NCBI GenBank assembly: GCA_015521095.1
Contig: WAOU01000020.1
Coordinates: forward strand, 1-30,718
Origin: Desulfurococcales archaeon
GTDB taxonomy: Archaea; Thermoproteota; Thermoprotei_A; Sulfolobales; Acidilobaceae
Direction: 5' to 3'
Length of the DNA stretch: 30,718 bases
The notes under the pieces were generated by a model that saw only the letters and a list, made by a program, of their open reading frames with translations, was not told the origin of the DNA and ran no database searches. Shown in pieces: positions 15,089 to 30,718 of this stretch. The position numbers and the translations under genes were made by a program. The first letter of the stretch is position 1. Each line of letters opens with the position of its first letter.

Positions 15089-15999
15089 GGGAAGTCATCG
15101 CCTACTCAAACCCTTTCGATCCTTGGAATAGTCCTCTTTGTACATGTCCCTTCAAACTAAGTCTCAACCCATATACTGGATGTAGTTTTAAATGTCTGTA
15201 TTGTTATGCTACGGCATATATAGGACTCCGTGATAGTTCCCCGAAGAAGGACTTTGTAAAAAGGCTAAAGCGTGATCTCACAAAGTATAGTCCAGAAATA
15301 CCGATAAACATTGGTACTAGTAGCGATCCCTACCCGCCTGAAGAAGCATATTATCTGCTCACAAGGTCAGCATTGGAGATTCTTATACCGTTAGGAAGAA
15401 GAATTCTCATAACAACAAAGGGCACACTATATGCGACTAGAGACCTAGAAATCATAAAAAAGGGAAATGTCGCGGTCACACCAACAATCACCACTATATA
15501 TTCCAGTATTTCATATCTCCTAGAGCCAGGTGCCCCGTCCCCGGAGAAGAGGATAGAGGCGGCAAAAATTGCAGCAGATAATGACGTGCCTATAGGTGTA
15601 AGAATAGATCCGATTATACCGTATGTGAACGATGATCCATACGATATAGAAGAACTCGTAGGACAACTAGCGGATATCGGTGTAAGGTTTATTGTAACAT
15701 CAACCTATAAAGCTAGGCCAGATAACTTTGTCAGGCTACTCGGTTCTCTAGGATCAGATATCGCCAACAGACTCCGGAAACTCTATAGTAATGGCGAGTA
15801 CGTGCAAGGTTATAGATATCTCCCTAAAAAGCTTAGAATAAACCTGCTTCGCCCGGTTATTGATTCCGCCAAATACTATGGTCTCGAATATGCAGTATGT
15901 AGAGAGGGTCTCTACGGAAAAGAATGGTTCAATGCCGGCTCCTGCGACGGCACTCATCTAATACCTAGAAGAATCCAGCCCCGGGGTCTATTTCAATGA
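15069..15999 (+). CDS. Radical SAM protein, spore-photoproduct-lyase-like (COG1533), apparent frameshift near start
   Basis: A 4Fe-4S radical SAM enzyme with [18 protein letters not shown]; the cluster cysteines are at 15181, 15193 and 15202 (C-x3-C-x2-C). [11 protein letters not shown] and a C-terminal R-E-G-L-Y-G segment also match the archaeal SPL-like family of about 300 residues. The frame holding these motifs has no ATG, GTG or TTG between its last upstream stop (15079) and the motif. The ATG at 15069 in another frame reads [16 protein letters not shown] and would join the family's FDPW-SPLCTCP segment if one base is skipped in CCCTTTC (15111-15117). So there is either a real or sequencing frameshift, or an unusual start codon. 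The substrate is unknown. Its stop overlaps the next ATG. Confidence 0.75.
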
Positions 16000-16916
16000 A
16001 GTGTCTTGATTCCTGCATAATAGAGGCGTCTATCAATGGAGAGATATCATACTACTATGTTAGAGGCTACGAGCACCCAATCACAGGGTACATAGTTGAA
16101 CCCTACATGAGGAATAGATGTAGAAAAATCCGTGGGAAAGTCTCATTATGCGAGAACTCCATATGTAGATACATCCCATACTTTGGTAGGCGAACACCTA
16201 TACTGGAGAAAAAGTTAATCGTATCAAGGGTGAATCCTTCTTCATCTTATTCTCAAAATATGAATCGTCTTCCCAGAAGTATAGTAGAGCTACTTGACGC
16301 TTTGGAATCATATGGGCTCGGTCTAACCGGTTCATGGGCCCTCGGATGTGAAAATAAGGAAAGCGACGTAGATCTAGTAGTTATGAATTATGACGAAGAA
16401 CTATTCAAAATATTGGAATCATATAAGAGAAAAGGGAAAATACGCCAATGTAGATTTCAGGAAATTATCTCGAAAAGGAAAAAGAATGATATCTCAACTA
16501 ATATCAATAAAATTAATAATAGCCTTCTCGATTCATGCTTCATCACTATTCCATACACATTAAGAGTTTTGAGAAGTTCTTCGATAACAACAATCATAGA
16601 ATGGAGACAACGATACATAGATTACGGAGAAATAATGCTACAGGCAATTATTGAAGATCCAGGTATAGAGGCATATCTTACCCCGGCCAGATATATCCTT
16701 GCCAATGCTAGCATAATAGAATCTTCCGAGGATCTACCGGATAACTTGCTAACAGAGCCTCTTATCCTGGAAACCTGGAGGACACGGTATACTGAGCTTA
16801 CCCAGGGTCGTTATCTGATTAGGGGTAGACTCTACTACGACATGTGGAGGTCTCAATGGATAATTACGCCGGACTGGGAGGGCGGGATATGGCGTATGCA
16901 TCTCGAGAAGATATAG
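15996..16916 (+). CDS. Nucleotidyltransferase-fold protein, copy 1
   Basis: A 306-residue protein joined to the radical SAM gene by an ATGA overlap. A DNA-polymerase-beta-type nucleotidyltransferase core begins at GLTGSWALG (GSW at 112-114), with the metal-binding pair in ESDVDLVV (Asp124, Asp126). The third carboxylate normally found on the next strand is not evident. The first ~85 residues include six cysteines (such as CLDSC and CENSIC) and may bind metal. The C-terminal part carries EDPGIEAYLTPARYILA, similar in pattern to the next gene's C-terminal region, suggesting duplication. Local base composition is more A+T-rich than neighbouring genes. The target of nucleotidyl transfer, if any, is unknown. 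Confidence 0.75.
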   Translation: MKCLDSCIIEASINGEISYYYVRGYEHPITGYIVEPYMRNRCRKIRGKVSLCENSICRYIPYFGRRTPILEKKLIVSRVNPSSSYSQNMNRLPRSIVELLDALESYGLGLTGSWALGCENKESDVDLVVMNYDEELFKILESYKRKGKIRQCRFQEIISKRKKNDISTNINKINNSLLDSCFITIPYTLRVLRSSSITTIIEWRQRYIDYGEIMLQAIIEDPGIEAYLTPARYILANASIIESSEDLPDNLLTEPLILETWRTRYTELTQGRYLIRGRLYYDMWRSQWIITPDWEGGIWRMHLEKI

Positions 16917-17857
16917 GATGTAGCTATGGCGAAGTGGTAATGACCAGATCCCTTATACTTGGTCAGACTCTCGGATTACCAGCGCCTAAAGGTTATTGTG
17001 TGTTTATGCCTAAGTATAAGGTGTGTGATTCTCCAAGCCCGTGGCGTCTGAGAAGTGTTAGTCTCTGCAGAATAATCAGGGGATATGGCCCCCTAGGAAT
17101 AATAAGAGCTGTCAAGAGATCAAACATAAAGACAGAAAACGTTGACTTGTATGGAGGACGGATCCCTATAATACGAGTAGAAGAGATATTCTTCAAAATT
17201 ACTCCTAAAGAAGCGATAAAGAGAATAATTAGTGGCGAGACACAGGACTCTGAGAGAAACATACAGGGTATATTGAAGAAAATACTAGAGGACTCTGGTC
17301 TCTCGATAGAAGATGTCGGTGTAACTGGTTCATATGCCGGTGGGTACTTCCATAAGGATTCAGACCTTGATATTATCGTTTATGGATCCGAGAACGTCAA
17401 AGTGATGTACGAATTATTCGTCGAGAAATATGGTTTTAAGAATAACCCTGAAGCAGTTATTCAGAGAAAACTTCTCGGAGGAGTCATTGTAAAGCCAATG
17501 ATATCTCTTTCCTGGAGAAGGGGGGAAGCCTGGTCTAATAACGATAAGGTCCATGTGACATGGATAGGATACGATGTTGAAAACACAATTCGTCTCGCCA
17601 AGATAATAGAAGGAAAACCCCCCGTAAAGAGGGTGTCTGTTAACTCGATTGTTGAGCCCGGCCAAATATCAGCCCTTACATATCCTCCCTGGATAACAAC
17701 TAGTGATGGTAGAATTATCGTATCGTACGAGTATAATGTCGGAGAAGTATTCTATAGCGGAGGCAAAATTAGGGTTTCTGGACTGGCATCCGAAAAAGGA
17801 GAAGTAGTATATCTAGGGCTAACAGAATATCCTGGAGAAGTCTCGATTCACGATTAA
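16856..17857 (+). CDS. Nucleotidyltransferase-fold protein, copy 2
   Basis: A second nucleotidyltransferase-fold protein directly after copy 1. The core motif is GVTGSYAGGYFHKDSDLDIIV (GS at 158-159, Asp170 and Asp172 from this start). As in copy 1, no third acidic residue is obvious on the following strand (GGVIVKPMISLSW). The C-terminal ~90 residues are rich in beta strands and contain VEPGQISALTYPPWI, echoing copy 1. The start is uncertain: ATG 16856 has a perfect GGAGGT 4 bases upstream, ATG 16889 has GGGAGG 7 bases upstream, and ATG 16940 lies beyond the stop of copy 1. The first is listed, giving a 61-base overlap. Probably one transcript with the radical SAM gene. Confidence 0.75.
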   Translation: MDNYAGLGGRDMAYASREDIGCSYGEVVMTRSLILGQTLGLPAPKGYCVFMPKYKVCDSPSPWRLRSVSLCRIIRGYGPLGIIRAVKRSNIKTENVDLYGGRIPIIRVEEIFFKITPKEAIKRIISGETQDSERNIQGILKKILEDSGLSIEDVGVTGSYAGGYFHKDSDLDIIVYGSENVKVMYELFVEKYGFKNNPEAVIQRKLLGGVIVKPMISLSWRRGEAWSNNDKVHVTWIGYDVENTIRLAKIIEGKPPVKRVSVNSIVEPGQISALTYPPWITTSDGRIIVSYEYNVGEVFYSGGKIRVSGLASEKGEVVYLGLTEYPGEVSIHD

Positions 17858-17868
17858 GATCTCCGGTG

Positions 17869-18231
17869 TTAGCTTCTCTCAGGTATAGGATGTGTTGCCG
17901 ACAGGAGATCTATGGCTTTTTCTAAAATCTGTTTTTTCTCCGCAGGATCCTCTGTAGCTATGGCCTTAACTAAATAGGATAGTATCTTGTAGAGTCTAGC
18001 GATTTCGTATGAGTTTTGGGTAACTCGCGATGAGAGATTGTTGACATTAGCGTTTATCGAGTCTATTAGTAGTTCAAGAACTAACAGTAGCTCGTCTAAA
18101 TCGCCAGCGTGGTGATGATGGTGATGGTGATGATCATGTGCATGGCTTTCTTCTACTTCTTGAACTATTTGATGTATATCTTCTGCCTTCTTTGGAAGGG
18201 TCATTCTCTTGCGCTTTTTTCGTTCACTCAT
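17869..18231 (-). CDS. Histidine-run coiled-coil protein
   Basis: A 120-residue soluble protein. A basic N-terminus (SERKKRKRMTLPKK) is followed by HAHDHHHHHHHHAGD (about residues 30-44), then two helical segments (LDELLLVLELLIDSINANVNNLSSRV and SYEIARLYKILSYLVKAIATED) with coiled-coil heptads. The histidine block would bind nickel, zinc or copper ions, so metal storage or a metal chaperone is possible, though no known hydrogenase or urease accessory domain is present. The ATG has GGTG 8 bases upstream. It is convergent with the second nucleotidyltransferase gene, 11 bases apart. No family recognised. Confidence 0.7.
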   Translation of the reverse strand: MSERKKRKRMTLPKKAEDIHQIVQEVEESHAHDHHHHHHHHAGDLDELLLVLELLIDSINANVNNLSSRVTQNSYEIARLYKILSYLVKAIATEDPAEKKQILEKAIDLLSATHPIPERS

Positions 18232-18414
18232 TCTTCCTGCACCTAATTGTACCGTATTTAGTGGAGTGGTTTTTTACGAGAGTTAAAAGCTCTATGTATT
18301 AATGATATATTAAATAAATAGCATCAGCTGATCCGGCTGAGGTTCAAAAGTAATAGTCAATACTATTATAGATCGTACAAAATACTTCATGATAAAGTGG
18401 ATGTGGTGGTTGAA

Positions 18415-18675
18415 ATGAAGGACAGGTTATTGAACCCGAAACTGATAGAGCTAGAAGGAATGGCCATGGTTGGCCAGGTAAAGAAGGTATCTATGGAGCC
18501 ATGCGAAGATTCTAGATTTCCCAAGGAGTGGAAACGCCTGCGCGCTATATTAGAGGATGGTACTATTTATGAAACTGGATGCATGGATCCTGAATCCGCG
18601 AAGAGAAACTATATGGTTCTTAGCTTGTATATTAGAAATTGGTCGAAAGATATAGTAATAGAGAAGAAGGAATAA
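18415..18675 (+). CDS. Hypothetical protein, 86 residues
   Basis: A small soluble protein with a likely beta-rich core: LIELEGMAMVGQVKKVSMEPCED, then WKRLRAILEDGTIYETGCMDPESAKRNYMVLSLYIRNW. Two cysteines are present but no metal pair. The ATG at 18415 is chosen because GGTGG ends 5 bases before it; the frame also allows a GTG six codons earlier. I do not recognise the family. It is followed after 25 bases by the C/D sRNA. Confidence 0.6.
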   Translation: MKDRLLNPKLIELEGMAMVGQVKKVSMEPCEDSRFPKEWKRLRAILEDGTIYETGCMDPESAKRNYMVLSLYIRNWSKDIVIEKKE

Positions 18676-18700: not shown

Positions 18701-18759
18701 TGGTCGATGATGTATGGTATTACCGCTGACTTTGTGATGAGTAGGGCTGTCTGAGACCA
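18701..18759 (+). ncRNA. C/D box sRNA guiding 16S rRNA methylation (predicted)
   Basis: All four boxes are visible: C ATGATGT (18707-18713), D' CTGA (18726-18729), C' GTGATGA (18734-18740, perfect consensus) and D CTGA (18751-18754). They are closed by the terminal stem TGGTC (18701-18705) with GACCA (18755-18759). The C/D ends make a textbook kink-turn (bulge GAT, G-A pairs, U-U, G-C). The D' guide TGGTATTACCG (18715-18725) is an 11-base perfect complement of 16S positions 30695-30705 in this window. By the N-plus-five rule the methylated base is A30699, equal to E. coli A532 in the 530 loop. The D guide (18741-18750) has target sequence ACAGCCCUAC, not found here. AATTATAATAA (18673-18683) is the likely TATA box. 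Confidence 0.88.
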
Positions 18760-18809
18760 CGGAAATCTGTCTATTCTAATAATAATGTAAATAATAAAAA
18801 TTATTAGAT

Positions 18810-19244
18810 CTACATCTTGACTAGGATCCGTGACGGTATTCCATTCTCGTATATTACTTCAAGTGTCAGATCTAGGTCGCCTAGTCTTACTAGTGGATCC
18901 ATGTCTTTTCTTACTCTTTCTAGAGCTATTATTCGGTTTTGGAGACTTCTCACGACATCGACGAGTATGTCAAATTCCTGCTTTGGAGTAGGATTGATTA
19001 TAGCTTTGGCCTGGCCGAGAGGTATCTCGGTTCCTCCAAGCTTTCCTCCACCTGTAGCAGTAGAGAGTAAATTCTCTAGTTTAACAAGCACTTCTGCTTT
19101 TGCCTTAGCACTCTCAAGTCTCCTGAGCAGCTCTCCTAGTTCACCCTTGAGTCTAGTTATCTCCGCGTCGAGTTCCTTAATTAGGTCTCCGACACTCGAG
19201 TATCTCTTTATATCGAGAAGTTTGGTTTGTCCTGTCGACGCCAT
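18810..19244 (-). CDS. Coiled-coil protein, unknown function
   Basis: A 144-residue protein with two long helices (IKELDAEITRLKGELGELLRRLESAKAKAEVLVKLENLL and EFDILVDVVRSLQNRIIALERVRKDM) joined by a glycine-rich turn (TATGGGKLGGTEIPLG), ending in short strands (GDLDLTLEVIYENGIPSRILVKM). The helix-turn-helix hairpin resembles prefoldin-like chaperone subunits in general shape, but no specific family match is claimed. The ATG at 19244 has GGAGG 8 bases upstream. The frame extends nine codons further to a TTG without a site. Its neighbour downstream is the sRNA on the other strand. Confidence 0.65.
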   Translation of the reverse strand: MASTGQTKLLDIKRYSSVGDLIKELDAEITRLKGELGELLRRLESAKAKAEVLVKLENLLSTATGGGKLGGTEIPLGQAKAIINPTPKQEFDILVDVVRSLQNRIIALERVRKDMDPLVRLGDLDLTLEVIYENGIPSRILVKM

Positions 19245-19396
19245 TTTTGAACCCTCCAATATCCTTTCCAATCATTATTTTATGATGTGCCATTTCGTTA
19301 TTTTAGTTTTAATGATATAAATCAAGAACAGGGGTTACATAGGAGAATAAAGTGTCTAACTGATAAAGGGGTATTCGGCTAATGCGAGGCAAAATA

Positions 19397-29893: not shown

Positions 29894-29956
29894 CATGTAG
29901 CCAGGGGTTATCCACGTGTTACGGTAATACTAGAACCCCTCATACCGACCCAAAAA

Positions 29957-30207: not shown

Positions 30208-30718
<511 letters not shown>

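What the first reader, a model, noticed from the sequence alone, without database searches (positions are those of the whole stretch)
18701..18759. C/D sRNA whose guide matches the 16S 530 loop in the same window
All boxes (C, D', C', D) and the terminal kink-turn stem are present in a gap between genes. The 11 bases directly before D' are a perfect reverse complement of 16S 30695-30705 (C528 to just past C536 in E. coli numbering). The N-plus-five rule puts 2'-O-methylation on A30699, E. coli A532, beside the decoding centre. Guide and target being seen together makes this more than a motif hit. The second guide (18741-18750) predicts target ACAGCCCUAC elsewhere.
Basis: partly seen in the sequence, partly recalled or inferred. 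Interest (0 to 1): 0.72.

Follow-up and report, generated by a model that had tools for sequence, protein, structure and literature searches.

The report
Guide RNA for 16S rRNA methylation
A small gene in a heat-loving archaeon encodes a guide RNA that very probably directs a methyl mark onto one ribosomal RNA base beside the decoding centre; it is a well-kept new member of a known class, and the base had already been predicted as a target in other archaea.

Summary
Window 18701-18759 has a 5-bp terminal stem, boxes C, D', C', D, and an 11-nt D' guide that is the exact complement of 16S 30695-30705. My scan found no second set of this quality in the window, and none (at most 1 mismatch) in 60 Markov-simulated windows.

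C box plus D' guide recurs in 113 of 229 genomes of the class; the reversed-pattern control in 8. Terminal stems pair with their own partner arms better than with others'. The same unnamed gene lies directly upstream in 31 of 56 relatives tested, from five families. It is therefore an inherited double-guide C/D sRNA; the N+5 rule points to E. coli A532.

The site is already in print: Dennis et al. 2015 predict methylation at 16S A509, which their numbering makes E. coli A532, in three of seven archaea. The second guide has no convincing target in the rRNA I could read. Neither the RNA nor the methylation is shown.

Verdict: new member of a known kind. The modestly new points are the order-wide synteny and the fixed D' guide beside a fast-changing D guide.

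The parts
18701..18759 (+). C/D box sRNA gene (whole element)
   Evidence: conserved in relatives
18701..18705 (+). 5' arm of terminal stem, TGGTC
   Evidence: own arms pair better than cross arms in 39 relatives' sRNAs
18707..18713 (+). box C, ATGATGT
18715..18725 (+). D' guide TGGTATTACCG
   Evidence: exact reverse complement of 30695-30705; GGTATTACC kept in relatives
18726..18729 (+). box D', CTGA
18734..18740 (+). box C', GTGATGA
18741..18750 (+). D guide GTAGGGCTGT, target unknown
   Evidence: no convincing rRNA target
18751..18754 (+). box D, CTGA
18755..18759 (+). 3' arm of terminal stem, GACCA
30695..30705 (+). target in the 16S 530 loop; A30699 = E. coli A532 is the N+5 base
18397..18675 (+). 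gene B, 92-aa ORF of no named family, directly upstream of the sRNA
   Evidence: adjacent in 31 of 56 relatives plus the window; no Pfam or NCBIfam match
18810..19271 (-). gene C, 153-aa ORF converging on the sRNA, conserved neighbour in many genomes of the window's family

Best explanation
The stretch is the gene of an archaeal double-guide C/D box sRNA. Its C/D and C'/D' motifs bind L7Ae, Nop5 and fibrillarin (established for the class, not tested on this RNA). Its D' guide pairs with the 530 loop of 16S rRNA and directs 2'-O-methylation to the fifth paired base from D', A532 in E. coli numbering, steadying the decoding loop at high temperature. Shown: anatomy, perfect guide-target match, conservation, synteny. 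Inferred: transcription, assembly, methylation and its benefit. The D guide either has an rRNA target outside the 16S part seen here or is idle in this lineage; a variable hairpin of 23S domain I (AACAGCCC...) is a guess only.
For: Complete box set and stem with an exact 11-nt complement of 16S; no equal set in 60 simulations; sub-threshold Rfam matches to several C/D families on the same bases, best sR1 29.8 bits, E 8.8e-6; C box + guide in 113 of 229 class genomes against 8 for the reversed pattern; 39 of 50 distinct candidates pass a box-only test, and their own stem arms pair at mean 3.41 bp against 1.82 crosswise, 0 of 5000 permutations reaching it; gene B directly upstream in 31 of 56 relatives; Nop in 3 of 3 and fibrillarin in 2 of 3 genomes of the nearest genus; the same site predicted from RNA-seq sets in other archaea (PMC4644070).
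Against: No RNA or methylation data. All Rfam matches lie below their gathering scores. Box C ends in U, not A. 116 of 229 class genomes lack the exact pattern, among them 30 of 31 of family f11 and all 6 of genus g6 (my count). 11 of 50 candidates fail the box test. Some relatives' stems are short or absent (15 of 39 under 4 bp). The D guide has no convincing target.
Confidence: 0.88

Rival explanations
1. It is a C/D sRNP whose main action is to hold the 530 loop open during 16S folding (chaperone), with methylation weak, partial or secondary.
For: Dennis et al. propose chaperone action for double-guide sRNAs; in some relatives both guides match helix 18 (13 of 46 D guides at shuffle fraction <=0.05, all scored on G024's 16S).
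Against: The D' box and the N+5 spacing are kept in most relatives listed, as methylation needs; in the window only one guide has a helix-18 match.
Confidence: 0.08
2. It is a C/D sRNA, but methylates another base of the loop (U531, A533 or A535) because the true D' box or register differs.
For: A separate sRNA type with the same loop aims at A535 (PMC4644070; examples L139, L162, L163, L174, L185). A eukaryotic family, snoR77Y, has a near-identical guide one base out of register (below cut-off).
Against: In the window D' CTGA follows directly on the guide, and N+5 falls on A532 without choice.
Confidence: 0.03
3. Chance motif, or a dead remnant with no RNA product.
For: The guide letters alone, at up to 1 mismatch, are expected about 0.4 times per window.
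Against: Simulations, stem pairing, recurrence across the class and synteny.
Confidence: 0.01

Closest known systems
Archaeal C/D sRNAs predicted to target 16S A509 = E. coli A532 (Dennis et al. 2015, PMC4644070): Tte sR15, Pca sR53, and a third species not named in the sections I read
   Same: Same class of RNA and same predicted 16S base.
   Different: Tte sR15 and Pca sR53 use the D guide for A509 and pair it with a D' guide to C530 and C34/35; here the D' guide is used and the D guide is something else.
A512/G491 sRNA type of the same paper: Tte sR114, Iho sR21, Pca sR28, Sac sR115
   Same: D' guide to the same loop of helix 18.
   Different: Their D' guide aims at E. coli A535, three bases on; the window's D guide does not match the G491 region (shuffle fraction 0.42).
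Rfam sR1 (RF01152) and snoPyro_CD (RF00095)
   Same: Box order, spacing and length of an archaeal C/D sRNA.
   Different: Guides differ; 29.8 and 22.6 bits, below the gathering score of 45 for both.

Membership tests
Archaeal C/D box sRNA | Boxes C, D', C', D in order with archaeal spacing | tested here: met
   box C has one departure (last base U)
Archaeal C/D box sRNA | Terminal stem beside C and D, k-turn pairing positions | tested here: met
   5-bp stem, G6 of C/C' with C1 of D/D'; stem pairing kept in relatives as a group, though 15 of 39 have under 4 bp
Archaeal C/D box sRNA | Guide directly before D' or D complementary to a cellular RNA | tested here: met
   D' guide 11 of 11 to 16S; D guide without a target found
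Archaeal C/D box sRNA | Host encodes the sRNP proteins | tested here: met
   Not in the window's own genome (not held) but in the nearest genus: Nop 3 of 3, fibrillarin 2 of 3 genomes; L7Ae not searched
Archaeal C/D box sRNA | Stable RNA of about 60 nt bound by L7Ae, Nop5, fibrillarin | not testable with these tools
   needs RNA-seq or pull-down
Archaeal C/D box sRNA | 2'-O-methylation of the N+5 base | not testable with these tools
   needs RiboMeth-seq or mass spectrometry
A509 (E. coli A532) guiding sRNA of Dennis et al. | N+5 base is archaeal A509 = E. coli A532 | tested here: met
   A509 = A532 follows from G507 = G530 in the paper
A512/G491 sRNA type of Dennis et al. | D' guide with N+5 on A512 = E. 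coli A535 | tested here: not met
   N+5 is A532
A512/G491 sRNA type of Dennis et al. | D guide to the G491 region | tested here: not met
   shuffle fraction 0.42 against G024's helix 18
Rfam sR1 | Score at or above gathering (45 bits) | tested here: not met
   29.8 bits

The most novel reading that the evidence does not exclude
This is one inherited sRNA gene, held beside gene B since early in the order, whose D' guide to A532 is nearly frozen while its D guide has been replaced again and again (5' side of helix 18, other sites, perhaps 23S). In G043 the site beside gene B holds an sRNA aimed three bases away (A535/G491), so the two helix-18 sRNA types may stem from one gene by a shift of guide register. 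That would answer, inside this order, the common-ancestor-or-convergence question that Dennis et al. left open for the A512/G491 group. The register-shift part rests on a single genome, and both types coexist in G021 and G043.
Probability: 0.4. Interest if true: 0.45.

Novelty: new member of a known kind. Interest (0 to 1): 0.3.

Why it matters
A532 lies in the loop that checks codon-anticodon pairing. A guide to it kept in about half of the class genomes searched suggests that this one modification matters to these hyperthermophiles. The shared neighbourhood lets the turnover of the second guide be followed in what looks like a single gene, which is rarely possible for these fast-evolving RNAs.

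Tried and rejected
D-guide target in rRNA: I scanned the window's partial 16S and rRNA of ten relatives. The best rRNA place was G032 23S near nt 141 (ACAGCCCUGC: 8 pairs, 1 G-U, 1 pair), broken in its sister G024 (ACAGCCCCGU); another good match in G018 lies in the flank outside 23S. Treated as a guess. G001-G005, the nearest genus, hold no 23S match, and G001 and G003 no 16S match, so it could not be tested.

tRNA as D-guide target: no tRNA in the 30 loci fetched, of 75 places listed for RCAGCCYTRC in three genomes.

Pattern TGGTATTAYTGA for the A535 type: 124 of 229 genomes match, but its reversed control is common too, so the count means little. Of 32 loci examined (the 30 it returned plus L139 and L017), 5 were C/D-like.

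Near copy of the target at 29922-29932 (10 of 11) upstream of 16S: chance level.

Gene B: no Pfam or NCBIfam family.

Papers: PMC4644070 was seen as abstract, sections 8, 9, 11 and found passages; PMC7994747 as abstract, section 8 and found passages; other papers as search listings only; one search found 0 papers. Supplements could not be opened, so the third A509 species is unconfirmed.

Full report
OBSERVATION. The 59 bases at 18701-18759 read as a complete archaeal C/D box sRNA: stem TGGTC/GACCA, C ATGATGT, guide TGGTATTACCG, D' CTGA, C' GTGATGA, guide GTAGGGCTGT, D CTGA. The first guide is the exact reverse complement of 16S 30695-30705. A scan with relaxed boxes listed this as the only set with at most two mismatches in all and a stem of four or more on either strand; 60 order-1 Markov simulations of the window gave no set with at most one mismatch, the level that the real set meets. 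At Rfam's own cut-offs only the 16S gene is found. With the E-value threshold, sR1, snoPyro_CD, sR2, sR11, sR5 and other C/D families fall on the same bases, best E 8.8e-6, all below their gathering scores.

TARGET. On E. coli rrsB the matching loop gives C528, G530 and A532, so the N+5 base is A532, window A30699. The same 11 bases stand in the 16S of G024 and G013.

RELATIVES. The window's own assembly is not held; the nearest genome, G001, shares 46% of sampled 31-letter words. A named close relative is an Acidilobaceae MAG (L021, 90% identity in gene B). The 81-nt query matched 40 of 60 relatives at E<=1, strongly only in G003 (95% of 75 nt) and G001 (100% of 57 nt, at a contig end); most other matches cover the C box, D' guide and D' box. 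The motif C box + GGTATTACC occurs in 113 of 229 genomes of the class, its reversed control in 8 (control counted by me from the table). By my count of that table it is present in 35 of 48 genomes of the window's family, 0 of 6 in its genus g6, and 1 of 31 in family f11; that one (L101) lacks the other boxes.

STRUCTURE TEST. From the loci in hand, 50 distinct candidates were taken; 39 passed a box-only test. Their stem arms pair at mean 3.41 bp with their own partner against 1.82 with others', and no permutation of 5000 reached the own mean; 24 of 39 have 4 bp or more. Eleven failed: L101 and L112 look like chance matches, and in the other nine one box departs from the spelling I allowed (by eye).

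SYNTENY. I tested 56 of the matched relatives. The small gene B (18397-18675) ends just before or inside the sRNA, on the same strand, in 31 of 56, in families f1 (20), f9 (6), f3 (2), f6 (2) and f10 (1), and in the window; genes A, C, D and E of the window accompany it in many f1 genomes. In G024, G032, G015, G051 and G058 gene B's stop codon lies within the C box, an arrangement that PMC7994747 reports from Tripp et al. 2017 as common. In 25 of 56 B is not directly upstream: for instance in G004 the sRNA lies in the B/C gap on the other strand, in G018, G026 and G082 it sits between genes A and C, and in G009 and G028 B is about 1 kb away on the other strand. Gene B was found in 23 of 28 further-searched genomes, among them all ten f11 genomes in that list; no C/D set was seen in the 160 nt after it in those ten. 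I read this as vertical inheritance with local moves.

SECOND GUIDE. D guides differ widely, also within the nearest genus (L060, L061, L062). Scored against G024's helix 18 (not each genome's own), 13 of 46 D guides reach a shuffle fraction of 0.05 or less, where about 2 are expected: for example L008, L013 and L039 on GGGGGGCAAGUCU and L100 on G491. The window's is not among them (0.42). Its best rRNA place in relatives is a variable hairpin of 23S domain I (AACAGCCC). As the nearest genus has no held 23S, this stays a guess.

PROTEINS. In the nearest genus Nop is found in 3 of 3 genomes and fibrillarin in 2 of 3; in G003 and G005 the two genes are side by side. Fibrillarin is missing from the 86%-complete G001, whose Nop match lies at a contig end.

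KNOWN WORK. Dennis et al. 2015 (PMC4644070; abstract, sections 8, 9, 11 and passages seen) report 23 predicted methylations at 13 positions of helix 18 in five of seven species. A509 and A512 are predicted in three and four species; with G507 = E. coli G530, A509 is E. coli A532, and A512 is given as A535. Tte sR15 and Pca sR53 use the D guide for A509. The A512/G491 type is a different sRNA. Both types occur in G021 (L004, L174) and in G043, where the A535/G491 type stands downstream of gene B and the A532 type elsewhere (L139, L017).

MECHANISM. Shown by sequence: anatomy, complementarity, conservation, synteny. Inferred from the class: assembly with L7Ae, Nop5 and fibrillarin, and 2'-O-methylation of A532. 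Transcription may come by read-through from gene B or from the A+T-rich stretch before the sRNA, part of which is kept in G003; neither was tested.

VERDICT. A sound finding: a new member of a known kind, aimed at an already predicted site. The order-wide synteny with a fixed D' guide and a changing D guide is the part worth keeping.

Noticed in passing
window 18397-18675 +: Gene B: a short protein family conserved through the order (23 of 28 genomes searched) without a Pfam or NCBIfam name; E20, A23, G26 and Y78 invariant in 12 aligned.
   Followed up: partly
window 17869-18231 -: Gene A: protein with a run of histidines, a conserved neighbour of gene B; in f11 genomes a His-rich reading frame follows gene B directly.
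   Followed up: no
L139 (G043), downstream of gene B: A C/D sRNA of the A535/G491 type stands beside gene B, while the A532 type is elsewhere in the same genome (L017): possible guide-register shift.
   Followed up: partly
L062 (G004): The sRNA lies in the same gap between genes B and C but on the opposite strand.
   Followed up: no
L135 (G171) and L137 (G037), 3' end of gene B: C/D-like sRNAs seem to overlap the end of gene B, with variant D' guides (GGCATTACC, GGTATTACA) and D guides that resemble the complement of the G491 region (by eye).
   Followed up: partly
window 15996-17857 +: Two neighbouring ORFs with nucleotidyltransferase-like motifs; only the second reaches a Pfam match (NTP_transf_2). 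A second weak match to it beside its homologue in L021 suggests a tandem duplication.
   Followed up: no
window 29922-29932 +: A 10-of-11 copy of the 530-loop target sequence upstream of the 16S gene; at chance level.
   Followed up: yes
window 18701-18762 +: Rfam snoR77Y, a eukaryotic snoRNA family, carries the guide UGGAAUUACCG, nearly the same as here but one base out of register; by recall it marks the same loop of 18S rRNA (below cut-off).
   Followed up: no
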